Shown in pieces: positions 9,419 to 53,519 of a stretch of 64,000 nt of DNA (position 1 is the stretch's first letter; each line of letters begins with the position of its first letter). The stretch lies in contig NC_045141.1 of the NCBI RefSeq assembly GCF_008831285.2, forward strand, positions 22,040,742 to 22,104,741, given 5' to 3'. Source of the stretch: Nymphaea colorata (lineage: Eukaryota > Streptophyta > Magnoliopsida > Nymphaeales > Nymphaeaceae). A program made the position numbers and the translations under genes. A model generated the notes under the pieces. It saw only the letters and a program-made list of their open reading frames with translations, had not been told where the DNA came from and ran no database searches.

Positions 9419-10277
9419 GTTCCGTGCCCCTCCGGTGAGTGGGACCCACCAGCAGGAGGACTCATGACATGTAAGGGGGCCGGGGGCATGTGTTCGGTCC
9501 GAACAAGCAACTTGGTTTGACTTGTGCACATGTATACCTCTGCAACTTCAAGTTGTACATACACTTAGAGCATCAGCTTTGTACAAACAGTGATGACCGT
9601 TTTACATTTTAAATCATGATTGACAAAGCTGGCAACCCTAATATATCGAGCTCTTAAATGAGTTCTTCCATTCTTTTTCCTTTTTGCAGGAGACGGTGAG
9701 CTACTGCAAAGCCTTAGCAGGACAATACCATGGGAATTGAAACAGTGGTGTATGTTTGGAGTTAGAACAAACATGAGTGTGCTTCACTCCCTCATAGACA
9801 CAATGTCACGTCCTCCCTCGAAATGGAGAAAATAGAATTGCTCAAAGGAGTCGTTCGTTTAACAGCAGGAACACTAAGTGGATCTTTCATAAATTTGGTT
9901 CAAAAATTGAGGTAGATTCATCAAATCTACTTTACCGAAAATGCCCATTTATTGTCTCACCCCCATTAACTAGAGACCAAACTTGTTTACTGACAGGCTT
10001 TCAGTTAAGGTGGTGTACGTGGTCGCCTCTTTAGCCGACTCACCAGATAGAGGAAACTAAAGCTTCTTTCTTTTCACTTGCATCCTCTAAAGAGCCAAGA
10101 GGCGATGTCAATTTTCTTCACGTGGGTGGGTCCTATGTTCCACCGACATTTTGTCGGCCGTTGGACCATCTTCATATCATGAAGAATATGTGGCTAGGGT
10201 GTCGTGTGCCTTGATGGGCATTCATCATTTAGAGATCAAAGCAAAGAGCTTGAGGATCAGAACATGCCGTGAACTTT

Positions 10278-10310
10278 TGTGGAATTCCTTCATGGAGAAC
10301 GTGAGAGAAG
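10278..10310 (-). repeat. Truncated 3' LTR of copia element 1 (33 bp)
   Basis: These 33 bases match the matching tip of the intact LTR at 14678. Beyond 10310 the sequence changes abruptly to RNase H coding sequence. Confidence 0.9.
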
Positions 10311-13300: not shown

Positions 13301-14660
13301 AACACATTGTCCATTTCAAAAGACGACATAGATATTTTGCCCATTTGATGAACTAGGAGAGTTCTTCCATTTGGTAACGTCACAGGTACATTACACATTT
13401 TTAACTCATGGAGTGCATGTGGATTAGAGCATATATGTCGACTGGCTCCCGAATCAATAATCCAACTAAGAGAATGTAAATTAGTTGAGTCATTGTTACT
13501 GTGTGAGCTATATTACCTGCAAAATTGATGTTGGCCGGTTGATCCTTCACCAAAGATAGAAGTCTATGATATTGTTCAATGGTGAAGGCTGGCGCAATGC
13601 TCCTAGTATAGTGTCCTCCACTGTCTTGACCAAAGACGTCATTAGAAAAGCTGGGTTTCAGATCTGGTTTGGTCTGGTTTTGACTGACGTTGCCTGCAAT
13701 ATTTTGCTTAAATCTTGGATCATAAAGACGATGGCCTGGTGGGTACCCAATCAGCTTGAATCATTTCTCTTTAATGTGTCCAACACCTTGGCAAAAACTA
13801 CAGATTGGTCTGGTTTGTTGTCCTCCTTTGTTTCGTTGGAAACCAGCACCATTCTCCCATTGGAACCTCTTTTCTTGATTGATTTTCATGATAGCTAGGG
13901 CAGCGGTTCCTTCATTTGTAGAACTTGAAAATCGTGCTTCCCGTTGCTTTTCTTCTTGTAGTACCATAGCATAGACTTTATTGATATTTGGAAGAGGGTC
14001 AATAAGTAGAATCTGCCCTCTAACGGAATTGTATGAGTCATTTAGACCCATAAGAAATTGCATGACACACTCCATTTGAATTTGATCCGAATATGCCTTC
14101 ATGGCACCACAAGAACAAATAGGGATGAGAGAGTAGGAACCAAGTTCATCCCAAAGAGCTTTTAGTTTAGTATAATATGACGCAATGGACATAGTATCTT
14201 GTTGTAGACGACATATGGAACTTTGGATTTGGAAAATCCGGGGAGCAAGACTTTGTGTGAAGCGCTCTTTCAAATCTTGCCAGACTTCTCTAGCATTAGT
14301 CGAGTATATGATGCTTGCTAAAATATCCTTAGTGACAGAATTCAAGATCCAAGATAATACAAGATTATTACATCTAACCCACATACGATGGTTAGGATCA
14401 CTCTTGTTTGGTTCTATAATTGAACCATCTATGAAGCCGAACTTATTTTTTGCTGAGAGGGCCATTACCATGGCTCTACTCCATGTTCCATAATTTTCTC
14501 CATTAAAACTTTGAGACACCAAAGCATTTCCAGGATTATCGGAATGATGAATATAAAAGGGATCAGATAGCACCTGGATATCGGCACCATTGATGTTGAG
14601 ATCTGCATCATCACCAGACGGACAGCCATTATTGATCTCCATATGTACACGTTCTGCCAT
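10311..14660 (-). pseudogene. Copia gag-pol pseudogene (element 1)
   Basis: Gag starts at 14660, five bases from the primer site, and runs to a TGA at 13761 just after the zinc knuckle, where the family normally has Cys. A frameshift near 13508 precedes the protease motif WIIDSGASRH. Integrase then reads on in one frame but is cut by TAG at 12895 (CDI*GPY, where Trp is usual). DNGTEF and NGVVERKHR are intact. A TAA at 11494 interrupts the start of reverse transcriptase (GYS*QEG). The catalytic IYVDDLLIAG and RNase H motifs (DSDWAA, SRSSAEAEY) follow, until the 3' deletion at 10310. That gives three nonsense changes, one frameshift and one terminal deletion: a clear non-functional copy. Long minus-strand stretches remain open, so decay is moderate. 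Confidence 0.93.
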
Positions 14661-15950: not shown

Positions 15951-16338
15951 GTTGAAGGTTTTGCCAAAGAACAAATGCAAATCTCATAAAATTCAGATAA
16001 CTGGTGGGCATATTTTTGATATCCCATTAAAGAGGGGGTAATATAAGTAGCTGCCTTTGGATTTGATCAGGCAGTTCTGCCCAACTTTAGCTTGGGCAAG
16101 GAGAGACATAAGGAGATTAAATGGTGATTATTCTTGTTGAGGTTATTCTCCCTCTCGATTGTACTATCACAATAGTCTGCATTCCTTCTGTGTCTCCAAC
16201 AGACTTAGACTCGATAACAATATGAAACCATACCGAACATGACGTGCATTAACAACAAATGCTCGTGTTTAGTAGTTATTACTCAGCCTGTGAAACACAA
16301 CAGGCTAAGATTGTCAAAGGAACACACTGAACCCTCCA

Positions 16339-18400
16339 TCATGGAGTTGTCCTGAATGAGTTACAAGCTGAATCAGAGACGCTGAACCCTCCATCTACAA
16401 CAAGGTTGTGTCCGCTGATGTACTTGGACTCATCACCAGCCAAATGGAGTGCAGCTTCTGCTGTGTCATCTACCTTAAGAGATAGCCCTTTTAAGTTTGC
16501 AAACTGATCAGCCCAACTGTGAAACTCAGCTTCATCAAGTCCAAAGAAGCGCGTTGTGTTGGATGTGAACACGGCATGTGGTGAAATGCAGTTAACTCTG
16601 ATCCCATACTTTCCCAGTTCTGTGGCCAAACTTTTGGTCAGTCCCACTACTGCATGCTTGGAGGTGCAATAGCCATGGCCACCAAGGCCAGCCATCAGTG
16701 ATGCACAGCTTGCCGTCAGGATTATGCTGCCTCGCTTCGCCGGGATCATCATCCTTGCAGCATGCTTGGCAGCTCGGAACATACCAACTACATTCACATT
16801 CATGAGTCCCTCAAATTTGGATGCGTCATAGTCCACCAAACTAGGCATGGGAGAGTTGGTTTCTGCAATGCCCACATTGCTGAACATAATATCAGGCCTC
16901 CCATGCACCTTGACTGCTGTATCAACGGCTCTGCGAATATCATCATCCTTGGTCACATCACAGTGCACATACTCGGCGACGTGATCTTCTTTTGTACTCA
17001 ATTCACTGCAAACATGCCGGCCTAGATCGTCCTGGATGTCAGCAATGAATACCTTGGCACCATGGCGGTGGAAGAGCTTGGCTGCAGCCAGGCCAGTCCC
17101 AGCGGTCGCACCAGTTACTATGGCTACTCTGCCTTTCAGCCTGAAGGTAAGGAAAAATCCAAATGCACAAGTTTACTTGAAAAGAATGTACTTTTGGGGA
17201 GGAAGGCTTCTGCATGAATACTTCAGCCGGTACGTTCTCAAGTAGATCTAACATCTCCACCATCGATTTCATCTGTCGGATGACCTCGTTGCGCGCATGG
17301 ATGGTATTCTGTCATATTGAACATCGGTACCAACCATAGCCATAAAAACCATTATCGAGTTCTGTGGCGAGCTTCTTCTCATTTATAGTACGGTGAACTT
17401 GAAAAAACAGGAAAAATAAGAGAAAAAAATGGTATTTTTTTTAAAAAATAACGAATCCTATTAAAATAAAATTAGTGAGAACTAATAGCACAAACATAAA
17501 AAAAAATTAAAACAAGCAGAAAAATGCCTAAACACAACCGGAAAAAACGGTTTTGGGATTTTTTTAACCATTTTGTAAAGTTTAACAACTAATTTATTTC
17601 TATTTTTTTAGTATGGTACTTACAAGCAAAAAAGAAAAAAAAACCTTATAAGGACATCTAAACCGTGAATTAATTTTATGGCCTGGAAATGGAGTAACTC
17701 GACCCACAAAAACAGTCGATGGATGCACGCGCACGCAGTCTAGGCCTGGGAGTTGAACAAAGTGGCGCCTTGAATCGAAGAGGATTTCAACAAGCTATAT
17801 GTTCACTATCAAATGACTCAGGCTCGCCTCAGAATGAACGTCATGATCGTGGTTTGAGTTGATCCGGGAAAATGAAATCGCCACTCAACACATGGCGTAA
17901 CCGATGGAATCAGCAAAAGGTTACTCATTAAACAACATATTCTGTGGGTCAAGATTTTGGAAGTGAAATCATGATGACACTGGAAGTTTGATGCACTGCA
18001 GGAGTCGATATTTTCTGCCTCCAGTTTTCCTCTCAACCCATCCGAGTGACCTGATTCAACACATATCTCCGTTGACAGATGATGTACAAAACATCCACCC
18101 AAATTTTAATACACACACAAACACAGACAGATCTATATACTAAGTATAACACACACACATACACATGTTTATAAACAATTTTTGTACGTGTTTCGAATCG
18201 CATCGCATCGTATTCTTATATACTGTTCTTTTTTCTTTCTTTTCAGCATCCTTTGCTCAACTTGATCAAACCCTTTCACCAGCCTTTCGCGACATTCCTT
18301 GGATGAATAAAGTACAAACTAAATGTAATTCCTCAGTTGGCACGATGAGATTCTAAAGAACTTACCTTTGAACAAGAGGTGGAAGAACCGTGTTGCTCAT
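16339..18400 (-). CDS. Secoisolariciresinol dehydrogenase-like SDR, copy 1 (two exons)
   Basis: Exon 1 is 18366-18400 and exon 2 is 16339-17140; the intron of 1225 bp has GTAAG and TTCAG ends and splits an Arg codon. The product is 278 residues, the usual size for plant NAD-dependent SDR110C enzymes (secoisolariciresinol dehydrogenase, ABA2/xanthoxin dehydrogenase and relatives). Exon 1 encodes MSNTVLPPLVQ. The Rossmann motif is TGATAGTG (residues 21-28) and an Asp closes strand 2 (IADIQ), which favours NAD. MFSNVG, the Ser-Tyr-Lys set (ASC, then YCTSK) and the C-terminal SKYISGHNLVVDGG are present. Differences from the other copies include GTG for GIG, GRPDI for GRLDI and ISPH for ISPY. The substrate cannot be told from sequence; a secondary-metabolite alcohol is likely. 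The start is set by the consensus exon 1, which is also conserved in copies 2 and 3. Its 5' flank is triplicated. Confidence 0.88.
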
Positions 18401-18712
18401 CTCTGCCGACATATCAAGGGGCCTCAATTTCCTTCCTCCTCCTTTTTTATATGTTAGACAAATTCACCAGCATTCAACTTTCTTTTGTTAAGAAAGGCGT
18501 CTCTGAGGACATATAAAGGGGCCTCGAGTCTCTTCCTCCTCCTCCTCCTCTTTTATATGTTAGTCAAATGCACCAGTGTTCAATGTTCATTTGTTAAGAA
18601 AGACAACGCCCACATATCAAGTGGCCTCGAACCCTTCCTCCACCTTCTCCGCCTACTGTTTTATGTTAGACAACTGCACCAGCAATCAATTTTCTTTTGT
18701 TAAAGAAAGACC
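18401..18712 (-). promoter_or_regulatory. Triplicated core promoter/5' UTR of SDR copy 1
   Basis: Directly upstream of the ATG are three tandem copies of a roughly 100-bp segment (starting near 18401, 18501 and 18603). On the gene strand each contains, in order, TTGTTAAC-like AT-rich DNA, a TATA-like box, a GA-rich tract and a GGCCxCTTxATATGT block. TATA boxes read TATAAAAA (18445-18452) and TATAAAAG (18550-18557), with a weaker CATAAAAC near 18655-18662. Copies 2 and 3 have one such segment. This could give several transcription starts. Confidence 0.7.
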
Positions 18713-27186: not shown

Positions 27187-27194
27187 CTTTTATA
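27187..27194 (-). promoter_or_regulatory. TATA box of SDR copy 2
   Basis: TATAAAAG on the minus strand, about 80 bp upstream of the ATG at 27110, followed by a GA-rich leader and the GGCCCCTTGATATGT block. The same arrangement occurs upstream of copies 1 and 3. Confidence 0.65.
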
Positions 27195-31023: not shown

Positions 31024-31394
31024 TATAGAAAAACAGAGTAGGAGCAGAGCAAACACAAAATATAACGTGGTTCAGCTTAAGAAAGCCTACGTCCACGGTG
31101 AGAAAACACGCCAAGAGAGTTCCTTTTCTTATTGATTAGTACAGATGGCGTGAAGGGTATATATAGCGTTAAGGATCTAAGCTATAAGGCAGTTTGCTAC
31201 TGCCTTTGTTACAAAAGATTTCTTCCTTGTCCTGCCAAGATTTGGTTTCCTTGTTTTCAGAATCTTCCCTTATCGCTGTGATAGTTGCAACAACATCGTT
31301 GCCATCTTTATTGCTAACCAAAAGATTAGGACGTTGGCTGTTATGTAACTGATCTTCTCTATCTGTGATGATCTCCTTTCCATAATTGCTAACA
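31024..31394 (-). repeat. 3' LTR of copia element 2
   Basis: 371 bp, TGTTAGCAAT...TTCTATA on the minus strand. It contains a TATATATA-type box (near 31158-31165). It also encodes the last 75 or so residues of the gag-pol frame, whose stop is at 31169. Confidence 0.93.
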
Positions 31395-34300
31395 CTCCCC
31401 TTCAAACTAGGCCGTGGAACAAGGCCGAGTTTGTTTCGTAAGTTGTTGAAGACTTGCTTGGCTAGACTTTTGGTAAAGACGTCCGCAATCTGATTTTTGG
31501 AACAGATAAATTTTGTTGCAAGCTGTTTTTGAGCAACACGTTCTCGAACATAGTGAAAATCAATTTGAATGTGCTTGCTTCTTCCATGAGCTACAGGGTT
31601 TGCTGCCATAAAGAGGGAACTTTTATTATCACAATATAGCAAGGGAACCTTATCTATTCGAATCCCTATGTCTTTCATTAGGAACTGAACCCATGTAAGC
31701 TCTGCTGCTGTCGACGCCATGACTCGGTACTCAGCCTCAGCACTGGATCGAGAAACAGTATTTTGTTTCTTGGCACTCCAAGTAATGCAATTAGCACCAA
31801 GGTATATACAGAAACCGGTGGTTGAGCGTCTGGTATGGGAGCAACCTGCCCAATCTGAATCTGAAAAGGCATATATATCCAAGGTACTTTGCTTCAAAAT
31901 TTGAAGCCCAAAATGTAGAGTTCCTTTCACATAACGCAAAATACGTTTAACCATTTGAAAGTGAGAGTGTAACGGGGCATGCATAAATTGGCTGATGTAA
32001 TTGACGGCAAACGAGATGTCCGGACGAGTAAGACAAAGATACTGAAGTGAACCAACAACTTGCCTGTAGAAGGTAACATCATCAAAAGTCTTATCTTCTG
32101 CTTGTAGTTTATGTATTTTTGTACTCATAGGAGTATTACAAGGCTTAGAGTCTTCCATCTTAGCCTTTTCCAAAATATCCTTTGCATACTTTGTTTGACA
32201 AAGTATGAGGCCCTGATTTGTCCAAGCAACTTCAACGCCTAAAAAATAAGTTAGGCGACCAAGATCCTTAACAGGAAACTCACTGCAGAAAGTATCAACG
32301 AATTTTTGCAAGGCTAAAGAGCAGCTTCCCGTTAGAATCATATCATCAACATATATTAAAAGTATGAGAGTAACAGGTCCTTGATGCAAGGTGAACATGG
32401 AGGGATCGGCAAAACTGATAGAAAACCCATAATCAAGGAGAAAAGTACTTAACCTGGCATACCATGCTCGTGACGCCTGCTTCAAACCATATAAGGCTCG
32501 CTGTAATTTGCAGACATGATCAGGTTTGGATTCATCTATGTATCCAGGGGGTTGCCGCATGTACACGTCTTCACGAATCATCCCATGCAAGAAAGCATTT
32601 TTAATATCCAGCTGTCTAAGAGCCCATCCTTTAACAAGAGCAACAGTGATAACCATTCGAACCGTGGTTTGTCGCACAACCGGAGAAAAAGTCTCATGAA
32701 AATCTATACCCTCTTTTTGAGAGAATCCCCGAGCAACAAGTCTGGCCTTCAGTTTGTCTAGGGTCCCGTCGGATTTTAACTTGGTTTTAAACACCCATTT
32801 GGATCCAACCAAGTTCATCGTGTGGTCATAAGGAACTAAAACCCAAGTTCTATTTTCAATGAGAGCCTTCATCTCATCGTCCATAGCTTTCTTCCATCCA
32901 GCGTGATGCAAAGCTTGATTGACATTAGTGGGTTGTTTGGGAATGTTCTCATATAAGATATGAAGATTAGCATACCTTGGATTAGGTTTATATGTCCCCA
33001 CCATAGATCTGGTGGTCATGGTTCTCACAGGACTAGCGATAGAATCCATAGAAGTCTGAGTTGGAACATTTGCTTCAGGGCATGCAAGGTGGTCTGTCTC
33101 CAGTGGCACATTATTGACGTCCTCATGTTGATCCATATGAGTAGACCTATCTGAACTTATATGATTGACTGCTGGCTGTTCTTGGGCAGTGTCAAGAGGC
33201 GTTCCAGCACAAGACTGTATGAGAATGTCTTGAGAGTGGCCAGCATTTTGTTCATAAATAGTAGGCTGATCATCAACTACGGTGGATGGGGAATGTGCCA
33301 CTGATTTTTGACTGTGTGAATCATGCAACTCAGTCCATTCATCAAAAGAAATTAAATCCGGAGTTAGTCCATGTCCATCATATAATTTTGCAGGATTCTT
33401 ATATGGAAAATACTGTTCATCAAAGCAAACATGACGAGAAACAAAAATCTTCCCTGTCCCTGGATACATGCAGCGGTATCCTTTATGATGTATACTATAG
33501 CCAAGAAAGATACACGGAAGGGATCTGGGCTCAAGTTTATCCTTTGCATAATCCCTTAAGTATGGAAAGCAACGACAACCAAAAATGCGCAGGAAATCAT
33601 ATTTAGGTTGCCGACCAAAAAATTTCAGGTATGGCGAATCCATATTCAAGGAGGATGAAGGCAGACGATTTATGAGAAAAACTGCACTGCTGAATGCTTC
33701 GAACCAAAAACGTTTAGGAACTCCAGAATGAAAAAGCATAGTCAAGCCTAACTCAGTAATATTTCGATGTTTTCTTTCGGCCATGCCGTTTTGCTGTTTC
33801 GTATGAGCACAGGAAAATTGTTGTTTGATGCCAAGACTGCCCAAAAGTTGAGTAAATTTTGAACTAGTGTATTCTCCTCCCATGTCTGATTGAAAAATTT
33901 TTATTCTTGTATTGAACTGAGTTTCGACAAATGTACGAAAGTGATCAAAACAATAAAAAAATTCAGACTTGCATTTTAATGGATACAACCATGTAAATCG
34001 TGACCACTCGTCAATGAAAATAACATAATAGCGATACCCAAGATGCGACGCAATAGGTGCCGGTCCCCATAAGTCAGAATGAATTTTTCCAAAAACTTCC
34101 ATAGCACTATTATCTCTTTCAAGAAAAGGAAGTTTACATGCTTTTCCTAACTGACAACTGTGACAGATGGTAGATTGAGGAACTGAAGAACTGACGTCAA
34201 TTAAATTATTTTGATGAAGGTACTTGATGACGCCAAAATGCGGATGACCAAGCCTGGAGTGCCAAAAATCAGCAGAAACACGCCTAAATCTGGATGAAAA

Positions 34301-35662
34301 GAAAGCTTCATGGAAATGACTAGAATCTTTAACGGTGCCATTAGAATCTCCAATGACGTAAACTCCATCTTTCTTACTGCCTTGCGCCACTGTCTTGCCC
34401 GTTCTCCTGTCCTTTAAGCAGCAAGATGAAGAGGAAAACTCAAAGGTATAAGGTAAATCTGTAGTTATTTGACTTACGGACAACAAATTTTTCTTCAATT
34501 GAGGAACGTATAACACTTTAGAGAGAGGAATATAAGAACCATGAACGACCAAATTTCCTTGACCAGTATGAGTTATGGGCAGAGATTTACCATTTCCAAT
34601 AATCACACGATCAGAACCATGATAAATAGATTTGTTAGAAATCTTACCCGCATCGCCAGTCATGTGGCTGGAGGCTCCCGAGTCAGCTAACCATTCAGCG
34701 TTGTTTCCATCATCAAGAGATAGAGCAGTCATGGCTTGTTGAGCATCTTCTGCTTGATAACCATGATTGAAACGTTCAAAGCACTTAATAGCGGAATGAT
34801 ATTTTTTTCCGCATATTTGACAAACAACAGCACTTTTGTTTTTCTTATCATCAGATTTGGGAAAGTGGGAATCGTTGATTTGAAACTGATTGTAATTGCG
34901 TCCTCTATTATGATTGTAGTTGCGACCGCGACCGCGCCCGCGACCATGACCATGGTTAGGTTGACGTTGATTCACCATAGCCATAAGAGGAGGCGTGGGA
35001 CTTTTGAGGCGAGTGTCAAAACTTTGAAGGAGTGGAACAACTTCTTCATAGGATGGAGCAGGAGGTCGAATCATGGCAGCGACAAAGGCTTCATATCCAT
35101 CACCAAGTCCTTGGAGCAGCCAATAAACTCGCGCCCCATCATCAACAGGTTTCCCAATGGCAGCAAGATCATCACAGATTGCTTTGGATTTGTTGATGTA
35201 TTCATCAACAGAATCATCACCCTTTTTGAGAGACGTAAGCAAATGAGTTAGGTGAAACTCTCTCTCTCTCGACTTGCGAGAGTAGGCATCCATAAGAGAG
35301 CTCCAAATGTCCCTTGATGTCTCTTGACCAACAACTCGACCAAGAGCACTTTCAGTCAAGGTACTGATTATCCATCCCTTGACGAGGCGATCTGATTTCT
35401 TCCAAGCTGTGAACTGGGGATTAACAGTCCTTTTCTGGCCTAAAGGATCAGCTGCATCAATGACGAATTCAGCAGGAGCAACAACGTCTCCAGTGAGAAA
35501 GCCTTGAAGATCTTGGCTTTCAATAAGAGCGAGAATCTGTGTCTTCCATAAAAGAAAGTTCTCTGGTCGCAGCTTAAGAGAAACAAAGTTGGAGACGTTG
35601 ATAGAATAAGGATAAGGATAAGAAATCTGTACCAGCGTGGAGGAAGATGAAATAGATGCCAT
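31169..35662 (-). CDS. Copia gag-pol polyprotein (element 2), uninterrupted
   Basis: A single frame of 1497 residues from the Met at 35662; a Met at 35680, overlapping the primer site, is an alternative start. In order: Gag with a SLKLRPENFLLWK segment and zinc knuckle CQICGKKYHSAIKC; aspartic protease WLADSGASSHMTG; integrase with the HHCC zinc finger (HSRLGH, CHSCQLGK) and DDE core (HSDLWG, SDMGGEY, AERKHR); reverse transcriptase with IYVDDMILTG; RNase H with SDSDWAGC, SRSSAEAEY and YCDNKSSL. All active-site signatures are visible. The frame runs through the polypurine tract into the 3' LTR. It makes the proteins for reverse transcription and integration of the element. With near-identical LTRs this copy could still be autonomous. 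Confidence 0.95.
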   Translation of the reverse strand: MASISSSSTLVQISYPYPYSINVSNFVSLKLRPENFLLWKTQILALIESQDLQGFLTGDVVAPAEFVIDAADPLGQKRTVNPQFTAWKKSDRLVKGWIISTLTESALGRVVGQETSRDIWSSLMDAYSRKSREREFHLTHLLTSLKKGDDSVDEYINKSKAICDDLAAIGKPVDDGARVYWLLQGLGDGYEAFVAAMIRPPAPSYEEVVPLLQSFDTRLKSPTPPLMAMVNQRQPNHGHGRGRGRGRNYNHNRGRNYNQFQINDSHFPKSDDKKNKSAVVCQICGKKYHSAIKCFERFNHGYQAEDAQQAMTALSLDDGNNAEWLADSGASSHMTGDAGKISNKSIYHGSDRVIIGNGKSLPITHTGQGNLVVHGSYIPLSKVLYVPQLKKNLLSVSQITTDLPYTFEFSSSSCCLKDRRTGKTVAQGSKKDGVYVIGDSNGTVKDSSHFHEAFFSSRFRRVSADFWHSRLGHPHFGVIKYLHQNNLIDVSSSVPQSTICHSCQLGKACKLPFLERDNSAMEVFGKIHSDLWGPAPIASHLGYRYYVIFIDEWSRFTWLYPLKCKSEFFYCFDHFRTFVETQFNTRIKIFQSDMGGEYTSSKFTQLLGSLGIKQQFSCAHTKQQNGMAERKHRNITELGLTMLFHSGVPKRFWFEAFSSAVFLINRLPSSSLNMDSPYLKFFGRQPKYDFLRIFGCRCFPYLRDYAKDKLEPRSLPCIFLGYSIHHKGYRCMYPGTGKIFVSRHVCFDEQYFPYKNPAKLYDGHGLTPDLISFDEWTELHDSHSQKSVAHSPSTVVDDQPTIYEQNAGHSQDILIQSCAGTPLDTAQEQPAVNHISSDRSTHMDQHEDVNNVPLETDHLACPEANVPTQTSMDSIASPVRTMTTRSMVGTYKPNPRYANLHILYENIPKQPTNVNQALHHAGWKKAMDDEMKALIENRTWVLVPYDHTMNLVGSKWVFKTKLKSDGTLDKLKARLVARGFSQKEGIDFHETFSPVVRQTTVRMVITVALVKGWALRQLDIKNAFLHGMIREDVYMRQPPGYIDESKPDHVCKLQRALYGLKQASRAWYARLSTFLLDYGFSISFADPSMFTLHQGPVTLILLIYVDDMILTGSCSLALQKFVDTFCSEFPVKDLGRLTYFLGVEVAWTNQGLILCQTKYAKDILEKAKMEDSKPCNTPMSTKIHKLQAEDKTFDDVTFYRQVVGSLQYLCLTRPDISFAVNYISQFMHAPLHSHFQMVKRILRYVKGTLHFGLQILKQSTLDIYAFSDSDWAGCSHTRRSTTGFCIYLGANCITWSAKKQNTVSRSSAEAEYRVMASTAAELTWVQFLMKDIGIRIDKVPLLYCDNKSSLFMAANPVAHGRSKHIQIDFHYVRERVAQKQLATKFICSKNQIADVFTKSLAKQVFNNLRNKLGLVPRPSLKGSVSNYGKEIITDREDQLHNSQRPNLLVSNKDGNDVVATITAIREDSENKETKSWQDKEEIFCNKGSSKLPYSLDP

Positions 35663-35667
35663 CGTTG

Positions 35668-35679
35668 GCTCTGATACCA
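35668..35679 (-). other. Primer-binding site of copia element 2
   Basis: TGGTATCAGAGC on the minus strand, complementary to the 3' end of initiator-Met tRNA, directly next to the 5' LTR. Confidence 0.9.
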
Positions 35680-36050
35680 TATAAAAAAACAGAGTAGGAG
35701 CAGAGCAAACACAAAATATAACGTGGTTCAGCTTAAGAAAGCCTACGTCCACGGTGAGAAAACACGCCAAGAGAGTTCCTTTTCTTATTGATTAGTACAG
35801 ATGGCGTGAAGGGTATATATAGCGTTAAGGATCTAAGCTATAAGGCAGTTTGCTACTGCCTTTGTTACAAAAGATTTCTTCCTTGTCCTGCCAAGATTTG
35901 GTTTCCTTGTTTTCAGAATCTTCCCTTATCGCTGTGATAGTTGCAACAACATCGTTGCCATCTTTATTGCTAACCAAAAGATTAGGACGTTGGCTGTTAT
36001 GTAACTGATCTTCTCTATCTGTGATGATCTCCTTTCCATAATTGCTAACA
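35680..36050 (-). repeat. 5' LTR of copia element 2
   Basis: 371 bp, matching 31024-31394 except for G/A at the fifth base from the left end, as far as I can compare by eye. Confidence 0.93.
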
Positions 36051-37770: not shown

Positions 37771-39923
37771 TCAGGGAGATCCCCTGAATGAGTTACAAAC
37801 TGAATCAGAGACACTGAACCCTCCATCTACAACAAGGTTGTGTCCGCTGATGTACTTGGACTCATCACCGGCCAAATAGAGTGCAGCTTCTGCTATGTCA
37901 TCTACCTTAAGAGATAGCCCTTTTAAGTTTGTAAACTGATCAGTCCAACTGTAAAACTCAGCTTCATTAAGTCCCGACGAGCGGCTTGCGCTGGGTGTGA
38001 ACATGGCATATGGTGAAATGCAGTTCACTCTGATCCCATTCTTGCCCAGTTCTGTGGCCAAACTCTTGGTCAGTCCCACTACTGCATGCTTGGAGGTGCA
38101 ATAGCCATGGCCACCAAGTCCAGCCATCAGTGAGGCACAGCTTGCCATCAGGATTATGCTGCCCTGCTTTGATGGGATCATCACCCTTGCAGCATGCTTG
38201 GCAGCTAGGAACATACCAACTACATTCACATTCATGATCCCCTCAAATTCGGATGTGTCATAGTCCACCAAACTAACCCCGAGAGATGAAGTGTCTAGAA
38301 TGCCCACATTGCTGAACATAATATCAAGCTTCCCATGAAACTTGACTGCTGTATCAACGGCTCTGCGAATATCATCTTCCTTGGTCACATCACAGTGCAC
38401 ATACTCGGCGACATGATCTTTTGTACTCAATTCACTGCAAACCTGCTGGCCTAGATCGTCCTGGATGTCAGCAATGAAAACCTTGGCACCATGGCGATGG
38501 AAGAGCTTGGCTGCAGCTAGGCCAATCCCACCGGCCGCACCAGTTACCATGGCTACTCTGCCTTTCAGCCTGAAGGTAGGAAAAAAAATCCAAATGCACA
38601 AGATTACTTGAAAAGAATATACTTTTGGGGAGGAAGGCTTCAACATGAATCGTTCTACTGTTACGTTTCCATGTAGATCTAAAATCTCCACCATCGATTT
38701 CATCTCTCGGATGACATCGTTGCGAGCATGAATGGTATTCTATCAGATTGAATGTTGGTACCAACAAGAAAAAAAAGAAACGTCTACAAAAGCATCTAAA
38801 CTGTGAATTGGTTTCAAAGGCCTTGAAATGGAGTAGTTAGAGCTGAACAAAGGGGCGCTTTGAATTGGTTCACTGGCACCATGTTCATCTCAACTCGACT
38901 GAACAAGTTACTGAGGTGAACATGAGCCTGCTTGTCCGCTGCCCACAAAAAATATATACTTTGGTTTATCAAATTAATGCCTTATTTGCCTTCTTTCCAT
39001 TACCTTTATTTCAAGTTGTAGTCTCATCAACTCAAATCCCACTTGGATTTAAGATTAATTTGCCTTTATATGATCTCCTGTTCACCAAAAGCACCCACAT
39101 CACAACATCGAGCTCGATGATAACCTGAGTTCAAGCTCGCCACATTATACAAATCGAACGGTTCATGAGACAAGCTCAACAAGCTATACATTGACTATCA
39201 AATGACCAAGACTTGCTTCAAAATGAACGTCAAGATCGGGGTTTGAGTTGATCTAAGAAAATAAAAAGGCGGCGTTGACCTAATCCTCAAGCTTCAACCG
39301 ATTCATGAGTCCCTGCTTCTACTCCCTACCATATTGCTTATACATATGATCGGTGCATTCTACTGTGCGTCAAGGCAAAATGAAATCGCCAGTTAATATG
39401 GCGTAACAGATGGAATCAACAAAGTTTACTAATTAAACAACATATTCTGTGGGTCAAGATTTTGGATGTAAAATCATGATACTGGAAGCCATCTAACTTT
39501 GATGCACTGCAGGAGTCGATATTTTCTGCCTCTAGTTTTCCTTTCAAGTCATCCGAGTGACCTGATTCAACACTTTTCTCCGTTGACAGATGATGTACAA
39601 AACATCCATCCAAATTTGTATACACACACAAACATAGACAGATCTAAGTATAACACACACACACACACACATATATTTATAAACAATTTTTTGTACGTGT
39701 TTCGAATGGCATCGCATCGTATTCTTATATACTGTTCCTTTTTCTCTGTTCCTCTTGCTTTCTTTTCAGCATCCTCTGCTCAACTTGATCAAACCCTTTC
39801 ACCAGCCTTTCGCAACATTCCCATGATGAATAATGTTCAAACTAAATGTAATTCCTCAGTTGGCACGATGAGATTCTAAAGAACTTACCTTTGAACAAAA
39901 GGTGGAAGAACCGTGTTGCTCAT
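37771..39923 (-). CDS. Secoisolariciresinol dehydrogenase-like SDR, copy 3 (two exons)
   Basis: Exon 1 is 39889-39923 and exon 2 is 37771-38569; the 1319-bp intron has the same GTAAG and TTCAG signals. The product is 277 residues; one Glu in the STKEDH segment of the other copies is missing. The cofactor motif TGAAGGIG, the MFSNVG segment, YCTSK and the C-terminal VVDGGFSVSDS are intact. The segment after MFSNVG (ILDTSSLGVS) and the segment after ISPYAMFTP differ most from copies 1 and 2; in SDRs these regions line the substrate pocket, so specificity may differ. Uniquely, intron 1 next to exon 2 is open in frame from a Met at 38703, giving an alternative 310-residue frame. A copia element inserted 44 bp upstream of the ATG separates the gene from its own TATA box. 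Confidence 0.87.
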
Positions 39924-39967
39924 CTCTGCCGACATATCAAGGGGCCTCAATTTCCTTCCTCCTCTTC

Positions 39968-40203
39968 TGATAAACTTGTGAAAGTGAGGAACAGAAAGAA
40001 AGAGAAGAAGAAAATATCACACTTTGTATTCATGGCAGGCCAACATATTTATAGTTGACGTTACACAGTTTTGGGTAAGCCTCTCAATGAGATAACAGAG
40101 ATCTTGTAGGGATTGGATCAAGCTCTTGATAAAGATGAACCAAAACTGTTGTGATACCAAGATTTTTGTTATGGAAAGTTTATCAGTTGAGATCTTTCCA
40201 ACA
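39968..40203 (-). repeat. 3' LTR of copia element 3, lying just upstream of SDR copy 3
   Basis: 236 bp, TGTTGGAAAG...TTTATCA on the minus strand, identical by eye to 44874-45109. It is in the same transcriptional direction as SDR copy 3 and ends 44 bp before its ATG. Confidence 0.95.
40046..40053 (-). promoter_or_regulatory. TATA box in the 3' LTR, pointing at SDR copy 3
   Basis: The minus strand reads CTATAAATATG. A start about 30 bp downstream would give a 5' leader of roughly 90 nt before the SDR copy 3 ATG at 39923. The same box in the 5' LTR should start the element's own transcript. Confidence 0.6.
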
Positions 40204-40210
40204 CTCCCCT

Positions 40211-43150
40211 TCAAGTTGGCGTTCCTGGATTGAAGAGTGCCAACTTGCTTCTTAATGTTTGGAACACTTCTCGTCCTAGTGACTTAGTGAACACATCTGC
40301 AACTTGCTGAGATGAAGGCACAAACTGAGTTTGAATCTCTCCACTTAGAATTTTATCTCTGACAATATGGCAGTCAATTTCAATATGCTTGGTCTGCTCA
40401 TGAAACACAGGATTGGCTGCTATGTGCATTGCGGCTTGATTATCACAAAATAAAGTGATCGGCTGTGTGTGAAATATCCCAAAATCTTGCAAAAGCGCTT
40501 TAAGCCATATGAGTTCACATGTTGTAAGTGCCATGGATCGGTATTCAGCTTCAGCGGAAGACCTAGAAACTGTTGTTTGTTTTTTTGTTTTCCACGTAAT
40601 GAGACTGTTGCCGATCATAGTGCAATATCCACTTGTAGATCTTCGAGTCATGGGACATGATGCCCAATCTGAATCACAATATGCCTTAAGTTGAATGGGA
40701 CCTTCTGAAGACAATAATACCCCATAGCCTGCAGTTCCCTTTAGGTACTTTAAAAGACGATTCATTGCTTCTCTATGCGGGACGCGAGGTTTGCTCATAA
40801 ATTGACTTAATATATGTACTGTATGTACGATATCAGGTCTAGTTATAGTCAAATATATGAGCTTACCAATGATTTTTCTGTATTGACTGGCTTCTTTGAG
40901 GACCTCTCCTTCTTCATTATCAAGCTTCAAGTGCTGTTCCATAGGAGAGTCATGTGGTTTTGCTCCCATATAGCCTGTTTCATGTAAAATATTGAGGAGA
41001 TATTTCTTTTGAGATAAAAATATCCCTTTTTCAGATCTTGCGACTTCAATGCCGAGCATGTATCTAAGCTTGCCCAAGTCTTTTAACTTGAATTTTTCAT
41101 TCATCACAAATTTGAGATTCTTGATTCCCACTAAGTCGTCACCTGCAATAATTATATCATCTACATAGATTACTAGAAAGATGCTTCCTCTAGTCGTGGT
41201 TTTGGAAAATAAGGAGTAATCTGCCTTTGATTGGGAAAACCCCAAATTTGTCAGAAATGTTGTCAATTTAGAGAACCAATTTCGAGACGATTGTTTAAGT
41301 CCATAAATGGATTTGTTCAATCGACATACCATATCTTTCTCCCCTTGTCGAGTGAACCCAGGTGGCAAGTGCATATATACTTCTTCTACTAAGTCGCCAT
41401 GAAGAAATGCATTATTAACATCAACCTGAAATAGATGCCACTTTTTAATGGCTGCAAGGGCGAGCAAACAGCGGATGGTAGAAATTTTGGCAACGGGGGC
41501 AAAGGTTTCATTATAATCAACACCTTCAGTCTGAGTGTATCCTTTGGCAACAAGACGAGCCTTATATCTCTCAACTGATCCATCAGATTGGTATTTGATC
41601 TTAAACACCCATTTGCAACCGATGGGGGTTTTGTCGGGAGGTAGCTTGGTGACCGTCCAAGTTTGGTTGTCTTGCAATGCATCAATTTCAGCACGCATGG
41701 CTTCTCGCCACTTTGGGTCCTGCATAGCTTGGCTAAAGGATGAAGGCTCATGTTGCTCAAGTAGGGTAGTCATGAAACATTGATAATGAGAGCTGAAATT
41801 TGAGACATCAATATATGATGCAATTGGATAACGTGTACCTTTTGGTGTTGTCGAACCATCACTTGTTAACAACTTGTTGGAAACGGGTAGGGCAGAAAAA
41901 CACTTGTAGTCCTTAAGGTGATTGGGCATATGGCTTGGGCGGGAAGACCTACGGAGTTGGATGGAATCATTGGTGGTGTCGGGGTTACTAGTATCTTGGG
42001 TTTGGTTGCCTAGTTCATCACTAGGTTGAATATTGTGGTGGTCATGATTTGTTTGTAAATCAGGAATGGGATCTTGGTGTTGGGTTGGATGTGGAAAGAG
42101 CTCATGTTCGCCTAAGATTTGATCACTGAATGGTAAGGGAAGCACTACTATTTCATCTCCATTAGTAATATTCTCACTTTTGTAGGGAAAATAGTTTTCA
42201 CAAAAACGAACATCCCTACTTGTGAACAAAACATTGTTTTCAAGATCATAAACTTGATATGCCGCTTGTCCATATGGATATCCAAGGAAGATACATCTTC
42301 TTGCACGCATATCAAATTTATGCTTTTTGTAAATATTATGGGCATAGCATAGACATCCAAACACACGTAAGTGTTTGTAATTGGGGGCTTTTTGGAACAA
42401 GATTTCATAAGGTGTTTTATTGTGAAGTGCATCGGTGGGCAACCTATTTATCAAATAAGTTGCTGTAGTAATGCATTCTCCCCAAAATTTGATGGGCAAA
42501 TTTGCTTGAAAAAGAAGGGATCGCGCCATGTTTAAAAGATCTCTATGCTTGCGTTCAACTACTCCATTTTGTTGTGGTGTCGCAACACAACTATGTTGAC
42601 GATCAATTCCTTTTTCATGAAGAAAATTTTGCATATCTTGAGAAAAAAATTCTGTCCCATTGTCACTCCTAATAAGTTTAATTTTTCTTTGAAATTGATT
42701 TTCTATAAGTGTGACAAAATTTCTAATCATGCAAAAAACTTCAGATTTGTGTCTCATAAGATAAACCCATGTAGATCGAGAATAATCGTCTACTATAGTT
42801 AAGAAATAATGTGCGCCACTTAATGAAGGTGTCTGGTAGCCTCCCCAAACATCACAGTGAATCAATTCAAAAGGTGCATGAGTAGAGATTGAACTAGTTG
42901 GAAATGGAAGTCTAGTACTTTTAGCAACAAAGCAAGTATCACAATTATCAAATGGCATATAAGAATCAATGAGTTTCAATCGAGATAACATAAGAAGTTT
43001 GGGATTAGAAGCATGCCCAAGTCTGAGATGCCAATGTATAAGTTTGGTTATGGTTGTACTAACAGCAACTCTTTCTTCATTGAGGACGTACAAACCATTT
43101 TTCAGTTTACCCGTTCCAATCGTAGTCGTCGAGTGACGGTCCTGCAACAA
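40211..43150 (-). CDS. Copia pol: integrase, reverse transcriptase, RNase H (element 3)
   Basis: An open frame of 979 residues. The listed start is just the first start-like codon (TTG); translation would really come through from gag. In order: integrase zinc finger (HWHLRLGH, CDTCFVAK), DDE core (IHCDVWG, SDNGTEF, NGVVERKHR), reverse transcriptase (KWVFKIK, AFLHGDLVEEVYM, VIYVDDIIIAGD) and RNase H (YCDSDWASC, SRSSAEAEYRSMA, CDNQAAMHIAANP, TKHIEIDCHIVRDK). Ends at TGA overlapping the polypurine tract. All catalytic signatures are visible. Confidence 0.93.
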   Translation of the reverse strand: MLQDRHSTTTIGTGKLKNGLYVLNEERVAVSTTITKLIHWHLRLGHASNPKLLMLSRLKLIDSYMPFDNCDTCFVAKSTRLPFPTSSISTHAPFELIHCDVWGGYQTPSLSGAHYFLTIVDDYSRSTWVYLMRHKSEVFCMIRNFVTLIENQFQRKIKLIRSDNGTEFFSQDMQNFLHEKGIDRQHSCVATPQQNGVVERKHRDLLNMARSLLFQANLPIKFWGECITTATYLINRLPTDALHNKTPYEILFQKAPNYKHLRVFGCLCYAHNIYKKHKFDMRARRCIFLGYPYGQAAYQVYDLENNVLFTSRDVRFCENYFPYKSENITNGDEIVVLPLPFSDQILGEHELFPHPTQHQDPIPDLQTNHDHHNIQPSDELGNQTQDTSNPDTTNDSIQLRRSSRPSHMPNHLKDYKCFSALPVSNKLLTSDGSTTPKGTRYPIASYIDVSNFSSHYQCFMTTLLEQHEPSSFSQAMQDPKWREAMRAEIDALQDNQTWTVTKLPPDKTPIGCKWVFKIKYQSDGSVERYKARLVAKGYTQTEGVDYNETFAPVAKISTIRCLLALAAIKKWHLFQVDVNNAFLHGDLVEEVYMHLPPGFTRQGEKDMVCRLNKSIYGLKQSSRNWFSKLTTFLTNLGFSQSKADYSLFSKTTTRGSIFLVIYVDDIIIAGDDLVGIKNLKFVMNEKFKLKDLGKLRYMLGIEVARSEKGIFLSQKKYLLNILHETGYMGAKPHDSPMEQHLKLDNEEGEVLKEASQYRKIIGKLIYLTITRPDIVHTVHILSQFMSKPRVPHREAMNRLLKYLKGTAGYGVLLSSEGPIQLKAYCDSDWASCPMTRRSTSGYCTMIGNSLITWKTKKQTTVSRSSAEAEYRSMALTTCELIWLKALLQDFGIFHTQPITLFCDNQAAMHIAANPVFHEQTKHIEIDCHIVRDKILSGEIQTQFVPSSQQVADVFTKSLGREVFQTLRSKLALFNPGTPT

Positions 43151-43198
43151 GCAAAAGTTTTCATTAAACTTTGCATCACATTTGAGTCACTACAAAGC

Positions 43199-44452
43199 TT
43201 AGGTATGGAGATGAGATTGAAATGAAATGTTGGGACATATAAAACATTTTTTAGAGTAATGGTGGGGGAAATAATCACATCTCCTACATGTGAGACAGAT
43301 TGGTGGATGATCTATGATTATGGGTTGATCAAGATTAGATAAGACATTGGTGATGTGGTGTGTTGCACCGGTGTCAAGAATCCATGATTGACTGGTTGTG
43401 GTACAAGAAATGAATGGTGGGAGCTTACCTGAAAGATTTACTTTGGGGTCATTGGTACCTCGGCTTGAGTTTTCCATGAACTCAAGAAATTTTTGAAATA
43501 GCTGAGTTTGGGATTGTTCGGTAGCAGGAGACCTCGTGGCGTTCACCTTTGGCCTTGTTGATGCAATGGAAGAACCCGACTTGTTAGGAAAACCAACGAG
43601 GAAATAACACATTGCCTTGATGTGGCCGAGTTTCCCGCAATGCTCACATTTTAGTCGAAGTCTTCCCTTCTCCTTGATTTGATTATATTTGTCTCCATCA
43701 TGGGACTGAGCAGCAAGAATAGAAGTCCTTTGATCATTTTGAATAATATTAACGTCTCTTTGTTTTTCTTCTTGGATGAGAAGAGAGTACGCCTTGGCAA
43801 CGGTTGGAAGAGGATCCATTAATAAGAGTTGACTCCTAACAGCTGCATAACTATCATTGAGTCCCATTAGAAATTGCATAAGGTGGTCCTGTTGGCGGAG
43901 ATCTGCAATAGTTTTCACGGACCCACAAGAACAATTAAGAACATCCATATATAATAATGCTAATTCGTCCCACAAGCCCTTCATCTTGGTGTAGTAAGCT
44001 GCAATGGAAGATTGGTGTTGCCTGCAATTTATGATTTGTTGTTGTATTTGGTATATGCGAGGTCCATTTGTTTGGGTGAATCTGGCCTCAAGGTCCCTCC
44101 AAACTTCTGCTGCCGATGTTGCATGGATCACACTAACAGTCAAGTCTTTATGGATCGAGTTCAAGATCCATGACTGGACAAGATTGTTGCATCGCTCCCA
44201 CGTGAATTTGAGAGGTGCAGGGCTCTCAGGCTTGGAGAGTGACCCATCCACAAAGCCAAGCTTGTTTTTGGCACTAAGGGCCATCATCATAGCCTTGCGC
44301 CACATAGTATAGTTTTCTCCAGTCAAAGGATGAGATACAAGAGCAGTACCTGGTCCATCTGAATGATGGATATAATATGGACTTGAGCTATCAAACTCGT
44401 TAGCATAAGAAGCGTGTAATTCTTTTTCTGTTCCGTGTCTTCCTTCTGCCAT
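43199..44452 (-). CDS. Copia gag and start of protease (element 3), frame disturbed at the end
   Basis: Starts at MAEGRHG (44452); a Met at 44500 further upstream is less likely because MAE-type starts are shared with element 1. Gag core ALSAKNKLGFVDGS, zinc knuckle CEHCGKLGHIKAMC, then protease WILDTGATHHITN. After DHPP the family-like sequence (SHVGDVIISP and on) continues in another frame, and near 43195 it returns to the original frame, which is that of pol. So there are two compensating single-base shifts in a window of about 90 bp. Taken literally, the protein ends at 43199. Confidence 0.85.
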   Translation of the reverse strand: MAEGRHGTEKELHASYANEFDSSSPYYIHHSDGPGTALVSHPLTGENYTMWRKAMMMALSAKNKLGFVDGSLSKPESPAPLKFTWERCNNLVQSWILNSIHKDLTVSVIHATSAAEVWRDLEARFTQTNGPRIYQIQQQIINCRQHQSSIAAYYTKMKGLWDELALLYMDVLNCSCGSVKTIADLRQQDHLMQFLMGLNDSYAAVRSQLLLMDPLPTVAKAYSLLIQEEKQRDVNIIQNDQRTSILAAQSHDGDKYNQIKEKGRLRLKCEHCGKLGHIKAMCYFLVGFPNKSGSSIASTRPKVNATRSPATEQSQTQLFQKFLEFMENSSRGTNDPKVNLSGKLPPFISCTTTSQSWILDTGATHHITNVLSNLDQPIIIDHPPICLTCRRCDYFPHHYSKKCFICPNISFQSHLHT

Positions 44453-44861
44453 TTTCTCCCTTGATTTAAATGGTCTGATTAGGAAAAATATGGCATTCAA
44501 TGAATATCGTCCTCAACCAAGATGGATATGGCAATGAAGGCACCGGCTAGCCCCTTGGCCATTGATCAGGGCGAGTACAATACAAAGAAGCAAATAAAAG
44601 AACCACAGGGTTTGGAGTTGCAATGAAGAGCAAGCACTAAGAAGAAGAGGGGAAATTGTTACCATCCGTTGTCTCCAATTTCAGGTGTACTCTTACTGGC
44701 CATGCTGACTATCTGAACACCATCGCTGTTCCCAACGGGTCTCTCTGTGCCAGCACCAGCAAGCAGAAGATAACGGCATTAATCAGAGGAGAGCGGACTC
44801 AACCCTGATGACATCCGGCCTACTATAATAAGGATCGATTGGGGCACCCGATTGAAGAGGT

Positions 44862-44873
44862 GCTCTGATACCA
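44862..44873 (-). other. Primer-binding site of copia element 3
   Basis: TGGTATCAGAGC on the minus strand, adjoining the 5' LTR end TTTATCA. Confidence 0.9.
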
Positions 44874-45109
44874 TGATAAACTTGTGAAAGTGAGGAACAG
44901 AAAGAAAGAGAAGAAGAAAATATCACACTTTGTATTCATGGCAGGCCAACATATTTATAGTTGACGTTACACAGTTTTGGGTAAGCCTCTCAATGAGATA
45001 ACAGAGATCTTGTAGGGATTGGATCAAGCTCTTGATAAAGATGAACCAAAACTGTTGTGATACCAAGATTTTTGTTATGGAAAGTTTATCAGTTGAGATC
45101 TTTCCAACA
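44874..45109 (-). repeat. 5' LTR of copia element 3
   Basis: 236 bp, identical by eye to the LTR at 39968-40203, with TG...CA termini, flanked on its outer side by the TCTTC target duplication. Confidence 0.95.
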
Positions 45110-45142
45110 TCTTCCTCCTCCTCTTCTCTTCCTCCTCCTCCT

Positions 45143-45150
45143 CTTTTATA
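45143..45150 (-). promoter_or_regulatory. Original TATA box of SDR copy 3, displaced by the insertion
   Basis: TATAAAAG on the minus strand in the same sequence context as the TATA box of copy 2 (27187-27194). It is now about 5.2 kb upstream of the ATG because element 3 lies in between. Confidence 0.65.
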
Positions 45151-45412
45151 TGTTAGACCAATGCACCAGCATTCAATTTTCTTTTGTTAATACTGATCAT
45201 TTTCTCTTTAGATACAATAATAGGCTGTTCAAATGCTTCAGTTAAAATCCAATCTTGAACTGTAGATGGATGGCACAGCATTAACGGTTAATAGGTCAGG
45301 TGGGCAATTTCGGTTCTACAATTTAGAGAAATTGACGGTACGCTCCTCACTAGTAAATAACTTTCTACAGTTTGTGTTTTAACTTTTTTATTTTCAAAGT
45401 ATGGTAGAAGGT

Positions 45413-52075: not shown

Positions 52076-52727
52076 GATCGGTTAAGAGGGTACACTGGAT
52101 TCGGTTTTCTTCCTCCACGCCGGACCCTGGTTTAATAGGATAGATCGACTCAGGTCCAATACCAGCGGCCATGAATAACAAGGGTTTTGGTCTGAGATTG
52201 CTGCTAGGAAAGACAAATCAGATCAAGTGTAATTGACCAAAATCTTTGGGCAGACCCATTTTATACGTGGGTGGACTCTGGCGACTTATTATACACCACA
52301 AAGCAATTTAAGATCCAAGGTGATTTGAGATCATTGGGTATCTTAAATCCAGGATTATAAGTTATATATACCCCCTCCATTCGACATTGTATCTGAAGTT
52401 TTGGCCGTTGTTGAGGATCTCAAATCTTGTGACCATATATTTGAGGATTTCAAATGAATCTCGTGTTTGTTTGCTGTGGGGACTCACGGAAGAGGGATTT
52501 GGGATCTGCATCGTATGGAACACACCTTCGATCCAGATCATGTGCGTAGGAACGAGACTCGGGTACATAAATGCCAAATCTGGAGATCCTGGACGGAATC
52601 CGTACCGTTCGAGGTCCGAACAATCGGCGTACCCGGATCTTCCAACCTCGTGACGTGTCGCTTTTTGTTCGTATTCGGGAGAAAGTAAATATATAAATAA
52701 GTAAATGATGAAGGGGTCTACCGGGAC

Positions 52728-52771
52728 GGGCAGCCTGCCCGCCACCCCCGCTTTCCTCGGGCAGCCTGCCC
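52728..52771. repeat. Two identical GGGCAGCCTGCCC palindromes upstream of the GGCT gene
   Basis: Each site (52728-52740 and 52759-52771) is a perfect 6-bp inverted repeat around one base, 31 bp apart start to start, about 210-250 bp upstream of the start codon. They may be binding sites for a dimeric regulator or a hairpin in a leader. Confidence 0.6.
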
Positions 52772-52979
52772 GCGAAACTCCCCTCCGCCAGAAGCGCTGC
52801 CGCTTTCCTTCCACCATTTATTCTCAGCCTTCCCCTTCCCAATATCTCCTACAGCACCCACGAAGAAACAGAAAGGAAAAAGAAAAGCAAGAAGAGGGAA
52901 AGGAGAAGAAAGTCCCACTCCCGACGCTCTTTTCCGCGTCTCTGCCCCTTCCGATCGATCACTAGAGAAGAGGAAGGGG

Positions 52980-53519
52980 ATGGGCGTGCCGATCGCACAG
53001 CCGGCTGAGCGCCGGCTCGTCTTCACGTACGGCACGCTGAAACGGGGGTTCTCCAACCACCGGCTGGTTCAGGAGCTCATCCGCCGCGGGGACGCCGAGT
53101 TCGTCGGTCCCTACCGCACCGCGGAGAGGTACCCCTTGGTGTGCGGGCCCTACCAGGTTCCTTTCCTGCTGGACTTCCGCGGCAAGGGCGACTGCGTCCG
53201 CGGCGAGCTCTACGCCGTCTCGGCCGCTGGAATCCGGCATATGGACGAACTCGAGGGCACGTCCAAGGGCCATTACGTCCGCCGCTCCGTGGTGATCATG
53301 CCGGAGGAAGGGGAAGAGGAAGGAGGCGAGGTCAAGGCGGAGGCGTATTTCGCGCACAGCAGCTATGCGGAGAGGCTGTGGCAAAGGCGTGGGATGAAGG
53401 GGCTGAGCGTGTACTCGCCGGAGGAGACCGTCGGGTATGTTCGGAGGGCCGATAGGCCGCAGCACCTCACCTTTCTCCAGCAGATCGACCTGTTCATCTC
53501 GGTGGGCGGCCAAGCCTGA
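52980..53519 (+). CDS. AIG2-like gamma-glutamylcyclotransferase
   Basis: An intronless frame of 179 residues. It has the family signature YGTLKRG (17-23), forming the gamma-glutamyl-binding loop, and the catalytic Glu in DELEGTSKGHY (E92 by position). GELYAVSAAGIRHMDELEG is the typical strand-helix stretch. Length and the C-terminal segment (HLTFLQQIDLFISVG) fit the plant AIG2-like/putative gamma-glutamylcyclotransferase group (At3g02910 type, from memory). The family releases 5-oxoproline from gamma-glutamyl amino acids or gamma-glutamylamines; the exact substrate of this subgroup is not settled. No signal peptide, so probably cytosolic. The GC-rich codon use is unlike the surrounding AT-rich DNA. 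The start at 52980 is the first Met and precedes the catalytic loop by 16 residues. Confidence 0.93.
   Translation: MGVPIAQPAERRLVFTYGTLKRGFSNHRLVQELIRRGDAEFVGPYRTAERYPLVCGPYQVPFLLDFRGKGDCVRGELYAVSAAGIRHMDELEGTSKGHYVRRSVVIMPEEGEEEGGEVKAEAYFAHSSYAERLWQRRGMKGLSVYSPEETVGYVRRADRPQHLTFLQQIDLFISVGGQA

What the first reader, a model, noticed from the sequence alone, without database searches (positions are those of the whole stretch)
39889..45215. Copia LTR may have become the promoter of SDR copy 3
Element 3 inserted in the short leader between the TATA box (45143-45150) and ATG (39923) of SDR copy 3. Gene and element share the minus strand, so the 3' LTR with its TATAAATA box ends 44 bp before the ATG. 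The original promoter is now 5 kb away. Transcription from the 3' LTR would give a chimeric leader of about 90 nt and put the enzyme under retrotransposon control. The alternative is that the copy is silenced.
Basis: partly seen in the sequence, partly recalled or inferred. Interest (0 to 1): 0.75.

Follow-up and report, generated by a model that had tools for sequence, protein, structure and literature searches.

The report
Young retrotransposon splits gene from promoter
In a plant genome a very recent jumping gene has landed in the few dozen bases between one dehydrogenase gene's own start signal and its coding part, so the jumping gene's end repeat is now the nearest promoter-like sequence; whether it drives the gene or leaves it silent cannot be told from sequence alone.

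Summary
A 5,142-bp Copia element (39968-45109, minus strand) with identical 236-bp LTRs and a 5-bp target duplication sits in the purine-rich leader of SDR copy 3, a gene with an open reading frame; copies 1 and 2 have no element there. New here: the gene's TATA box lies 41 nt before the insertion, so the predicted native start site survives 5-13 nt outside the element. A native transcript would meet 123 ATGs before the SDR, the first made by the junction itself. A transcript from the LTR TATA box (exact in 28 of 30 family LTRs) would have a 79-93 nt leader without any upstream ATG. The 3' LTR is therefore the sequence best placed to give translatable SDR3 mRNA. No expression or methylation data were available, so LTR-driven, stress-conditional and silent states all stay open. 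The insertion is younger than the gene duplication, so the open frame is no proof of use. A known kind of event (Tcs1/Ruby, blood orange); modest interest.

The parts
45143..45150 (-). native TATA box (TATAAAAG) of SDR copy 3
   Evidence: same box before copy 2 (27194) and copy 1 (18451, 18557)
45110..45114 (-). target-site duplication, upstream copy (GAAGA on the minus strand); with the LTR's TG it makes a new ATG
44874..45109 (-). 5' LTR, 236 bp
44862..44873 (-). primer-binding site TGGTATCAGAGC (initiator-Met tRNA type, recalled)
   Evidence: read
43199..44452 (-). copia-type gag frame, from its first ATG (44450-44452) to the first stop
   Evidence: Pfam PF14244, PF14223
43187..43201 (-). 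cluster of three in-frame stops (TAA, TAG, TGA) that interrupts gag-pol
   Evidence: read; frame ends
40211..43186 (-). pol frame: GAG-pre-integrase, integrase, SH3, reverse transcriptase (searched as two pieces)
40204..40212 (-). polypurine tract GAAGGGGAG
   Evidence: read
39968..40203 (-). 3' LTR, 236 bp, candidate promoter of SDR copy 3
40046..40053 (-). LTR TATA box TATAAATA
   Evidence: TATAAATATG in 28 of 30 family LTRs
39963..39967 (-). target-site duplication, downstream copy
39936..39967 (-). the 32 nt of native leader left between LTR and first ATG
39889..39935 (-). SDR copy 3 exon 1 (ATG 39933-39935; second in-frame ATG 39921-39923; donor AAAG|GTAAGT)
37771..38569 (-). SDR copy 3 exon 2, open to its stop; spliced protein 281 aa
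24948..27194 (-). SDR copy 2 with plain leader (TATA 27187-27194 region, ATG 27122), comparison for the empty site
16278..18711 (-). SDR copy 1 (ATG 18412) with a 106-bp promoter-leader unit repeated about three times (18400-18711)

Best explanation
A copy of a small, recently active Ty1/copia family inserted in sense orientation into the 5' leader of SDR copy 3, a few bases after its predicted native start site. Shown: the insertion, its duplication, its youth, and the cut between native TATA box and coding region. Inferred: native transcription now starts just outside the 5' LTR and runs into the element, where the scanning ribosome meets many ATGs, so it yields little or no SDR3 protein. 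The 3' LTR, whose TATA box stands about 80-90 nt before the SDR start with no ATG after the predicted start site, is the likeliest source of whatever SDR3 mRNA is made. SDR3 has thus lost its own regulation, and its output follows the LTR's activity: probably low, or conditional, in most tissues.
For: Identical LTRs with 5-bp duplication. Native TATA 41 nt before the element; predicted native start 45114-45122, 5-13 nt outside the LTR edge (the 28-36 nt TATA-to-start distance is recalled general knowledge). 123 ATGs between native start region and SDR ATG, the first made by the junction. LTR leader of 79-93 nt without ATG for the six start offsets tried. TATAAATATG exact in 28 of 30 LTRs from 17 loci; among 12 diverged rows that window is 96% conserved against a mean of 77%. 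Exon 1 donor and exon 2 acceptor are strong and both exons are open. Precedent: the 3' LTR of Tcs1 gives start and regulation of Ruby in blood orange (PMC5056178, passages).
Against: No transcript, CAGE, RACE or methylation data were available; start sites are predicted from TATA spacing only. Other LTR windows are as conserved as the TATA box (98% and 97%), so its conservation is not unique. If transcription started above LTR position 171 (40033), an upstream ATG would open a 28-codon reading frame ending before the SDR start. The open SDR frame does not show use, since the insertion is too young for decay. Plant LTRs are generally silenced (general knowledge).
Confidence: 0.5

Rival explanations
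1. SDR3 is in effect silenced: the young element is methylated through RNA-directed DNA methylation, the 3' LTR is off, and SDR3 is a null or strong loss-of-expression allele tolerated because copies 1 and 2 remain.
For: Two close paralogues with open frames in the same array (85% and 88% identical proteins). Copy 3 already had more lineage-specific amino-acid changes than copy 2 (28 against 11 nonsynonymous, binomial p 0.009; Fisher against synonymous p 0.085), as a redundant copy might. Rider and ONSEN, both LTR elements of plants, are held down by RdDM (PMC6762207 and PMC5056178, passages).
Against: No methylation data. Half of copy 3's changes (14 of 28) fall in one 30-codon bin, which is unlike plain decay. 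At least 2 of 13 family members with two LTRs have identical LTRs, so the family has been transcribed recently.
Confidence: 0.33
2. The element behaves as an intron: native-promoter transcripts are spliced from a donor inside the element to an acceptor near the 3' LTR/gene junction.
For: The U5 end is pyrimidine-rich, with AAG at 39975 and CAG at 39967 (pyrimidine fractions 0.82 and 0.65). One strong donor exists inside the element (43428, score 6.5 against 7.1 for the exon 1 donor) (scoring matrix recalled and rough).
Against: Donors between the native start and the gag ATG are weak (best 2.1). The junction ATG at 45110 lies before every listed donor, so it would remain in the leader. The junction CAG did not pass my acceptor filter (7 of 285 AGs did, none within 300 bp of the junction).
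Confidence: 0.07
3. SDR3 is expressed from a cryptic start in intron 1, giving a protein with another N-terminus.
For: In copy 3 the exon 2 frame is open well upstream into the intron (322 aa stop to stop, against 277 in copies 1 and 2).
Against: No promoter evidence in the intron was sought beyond reading; the longer frame may be chance; the intron is conserved with copy 2 in length and sequence.
Confidence: 0.05

Closest known systems
Tcs1 insertion at Ruby (blood orange; Butelli et al. 2012, seen through passages of the review PMC5056178)
   Same: Copia-like LTR element in sense orientation upstream of a gene, so that the 3' LTR can supply start site and regulation.
   Different: There the transcript, cold response and phenotype are shown and a solo LTR suffices; here only the anatomy is known. 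Here the element lies inside the leader, after the native start site.
Rider (tomato Copia family; PMC6762207, passages)
   Same: Young Copia family that alters neighbouring genes; its LTR carries promoter motifs.
   Different: Drought and ABA response measured; no relation of sequence was tested here.
Plant SDR110C-type dehydrogenases: borneol dehydrogenase (8r0c, 7o6p, 6zyz) and secoisolariciresinol dehydrogenase (2bgk)
   Same: Best matches of SDR3 among solved structures (E 1.9e-85 and 7.2e-85); same fold family in Pfam.
   Different: Substrate unknown; copy 3 differs from copies 1 and 2 around residues 96-125.

Membership tests
Ty1/copia LTR retrotransposon | two LTRs, TG...CA ends, short target-site duplication | tested here: met
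Ty1/copia LTR retrotransposon | gag, then integrase, then reverse transcriptase | tested here: met
   PF14244/PF14223, PF00665, PF07727 in this order on the minus strand
Ty1/copia LTR retrotransposon | PBS after the 5' LTR and polypurine tract before the 3' LTR | tested here: met
   TGGTATCAGAGC and GAAGGGGAG read; tRNA match recalled
Ty1/copia LTR retrotransposon | one uninterrupted gag-pol frame (autonomous copy) | tested here: not met
   cluster of in-frame stops at 43187-43201; does not bear on being a copia element, only on autonomy
LTR-driven host gene (Tcs1/Ruby type) | sense LTR directly upstream of an intact host coding region | tested here: met
LTR-driven host gene (Tcs1/Ruby type) | transcripts that start in the LTR and run into the gene | not testable with these tools
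   no transcript data held
LTR-driven host gene (Tcs1/Ruby type) | expression pattern follows the LTR (stress or tissue) | not testable with these tools
   no expression data; motif scan weak
SDR (classical, plant SDR110C type) | adh_short fold family, glycine motif, YxxxK | tested here: met
   PF13561 E 5.6e-63, PF00106 E 1.3e-49; TGAAGGIG and YCTSK read; SDR110C name recalled

The most novel reading that the evidence does not exclude
A natural, very recent promoter capture in a water-lily-like plant: the copy of a three-gene dehydrogenase array whose active-site region has diverged most has been unplugged from its own promoter and placed under a Copia LTR with MYB-type sites, giving the enzyme a new expression pattern while copies 1 and 2 keep the old role, each copy now having a different promoter (triplicated unit, plain, LTR).
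Probability: 0.12. Interest if true: 0.6.

Novelty: new member of a known kind. Interest (0 to 1): 0.3.

Why it matters
If the LTR drives SDR3, this is a dated, near-base-pair-clean case of promoter replacement with two paralogous controls in the same array, in which native and LTR regulation of sister enzymes can be compared directly. If SDR3 is silent, it is a plain example of an insertion tolerated in a redundant tandem copy. Either outcome is of a kind already documented in plants.

Tried and rejected
Assembly artefact or chimera: rejected, since a matching 5-bp duplication flanks the element and 9 of 13 loci with both ends defined in this family show an exact 5-bp duplication (the four without are C15, C7a, C4b and C5b, of which C15 and C5b have truncated or badly placed 5' ends in my cut).

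Empty allele elsewhere in the assembly: none seen with either flank; other matches were paralogues and simple repeats. Capped searches, so weak evidence.

A preference of the family for promoters or purine-rich targets: not supported. Only this locus, 1 of 13, has a TATA-like box within 150 nt upstream. Purine content around the site is 83% here against 35-68% at the 12 others. Ten flank ORFs from 8 loci gave no host gene domain in Pfam, one an RVT_1 match.

Stress motifs in U3: 11 motifs scanned; MYB core CNGTTR 3 times against 0.49 in shuffles (p 0.011 before correction, not significant after), present somewhere in 30 of 30 LTRs; heat-shock, W-box, ABRE and DRE patterns absent from U3.

Using the intact SDR frame as evidence of function: rejected, because 0 of 236 LTR differences bound the insertion below about 0.5-0.9 million years (rates recalled), while copies 2 and 3 differ by Ks 0.066.

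In-print check: listings for Nymphaea colorata with retrotransposon (50 papers, 20 listed), genome paper terms (9), water lily/borneol dehydrogenase/retrotransposon (57, 20 listed), methylation (6) showed no title on this locus. Searches were searched for precedents.

Full report
Setting. The window lies at C4:22040742-22104741 of a genome of 407.8 Mb in 783 contigs. Size fits Nymphaea colorata (409 Mb, 804 scaffolds; passages of PMC7015852), but no tool named the species, so this is an inference. Three tandem SDR copies lie on the minus strand: copy 1 (ATG 18412), copy 2 (ATG 27122), copy 3 (ATG 39935), with 282, 282 and 281 residues after splicing of one intron. Their exon 2 proteins are 85-88% identical to copy 3; the next relatives in this genome are 68% and 67%.

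The insertion. Between the native TATA box of copy 3 (45143-45150) and its ATG lies an element of 5,142 bp with two identical 236-bp LTRs, TG...CA ends, TCTTC duplication, PBS and polypurine tract. Gag, pre-integrase, integrase and RVT_2 domains occur in copia order. The gag-pol frame is interrupted by a cluster of three in-frame stops at 43187-43201, so this copy as it stands does not encode one uninterrupted polyprotein. Joining the flanks gives a leader that aligns with copy 2 and with the proximal part of copy 1, so the ancestral state is an uninterrupted purine-rich leader with 68 nt from TATA to ATG (72 in copy 2).

The ATG cited (39923) is the second of two in-frame ATGs; the first is at 39935 and both are kept in all three copies. 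The LTR therefore ends 32 bp before the start.

Where transcription could start. The native TATA box stands 41 nt before the element. With the usual 28-36 nt spacing (recalled), the native start site is at 45114-45122, outside the element by 5-13 nt. Native transcription is thus not destroyed in place but now runs into the 5' LTR. The duplication and the LTR's first bases form a new ATG at 45110, and there are 123 ATGs in all before the SDR ATG, so such an RNA is unlikely to be translated into SDR3. The 3' LTR TATA box at 40046-40053 predicts starts at 40028-40014 with leaders of 79-93 nt and no upstream ATG. A start above 40033 would add a 28-codon upstream frame.

Is the LTR a promoter? The family is small: 34 matches, about 18 loci (counts are lower bounds). 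In 30 LTRs from 17 loci, TATAAATATG is exact in 28. Among 12 diverged rows this window is 96% conserved against a mean of 77%, though two other windows reach 97-98%. This supports a working element promoter in the past, not present activity. No motif gives a firm hint of stress control.

Age and state of the gene. 0 of 236 LTR differences bound the age to under about 0.5 or 0.9 million years at two recalled rates; another locus, C11, also has identical LTRs, 2 of 13 pairs in all. Copies 2 and 3 differ by Ks 0.066, so the duplication is older. Ka/Ks of copies 2 and 3 is 0.99, of 1 and 3 0.75, of 1 and 2 0.49. Copy 3 has 28 nonsynonymous and 5 synonymous private changes, copy 2 11 and 7; 14 of the 28 lie in codons 96-125. 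Against two more distant relatives, of 20 private residues of copy 3, 3 are derived, 4 look ancestral and 13 are unclear. So copy 3 was changing fast, by relaxed or positive selection or gene conversion, before the insertion; the call cannot tell which. The nearest solved structures are borneol and secoisolariciresinol dehydrogenases.

Outcome. LTR-started mRNA, silencing, splicing over the element and an intron start are the candidates. The first is favoured for any SDR3 protein that is made, because it alone needs no further event and gives a clean leader; silencing is the main rival for the overall state. Sequence cannot decide. Precedent for the first is Tcs1/Ruby (PMC5056178, passages).

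Chance. One random insertion falls between a TATA box and ATG on the gene's strand with probability about 0.26% if all 31,580 annotated genes had such a 67-bp stretch. This is uncommon for one small family (0.044 expected) but to be expected somewhere in a genome rich in LTR elements. No other of the 13 loci with both ends has a TATA-like box close upstream, so it looks like a chance landing rather than a targeting preference.

Noticed in passing
window 18400-18711: The promoter-leader unit of SDR copy 1 is repeated about three times with a 106-bp period (TATA, purine leader, start-codon-like segment), so transcripts from the middle unit's TATA (18557) would carry decoy ATGs. The three SDR copies thus have three different leader types.
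   Followed up: partly
window 31024-35979: A second Copia element between copies 2 and 3 with direct repeats of at least 300 nt at 100% identity and one open 1,540-aa frame (31169-35791).
   Followed up: no
window 37771-39935, codons 96-125 of SDR copy 3: 14 of 28 amino-acid-changing private substitutions of copy 3 cluster in about 30 codons, near the region that follows the cofactor-binding part; could be selection or gene conversion.
   Followed up: partly
window 7674-8225: Three head-to-tail copies of a 184-nt repeat at 98-100% identity.
   Followed up: no
window 13761-14660 (and open frames at 10225-13512): A copia-type gag frame on the minus strand, apparently part of another element.
   Followed up: no
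window 52701-53519: Open frame with a gamma-glutamyl cyclotransferase, AIG2-like domain (PF06094, E 4.7e-19).
   Followed up: no
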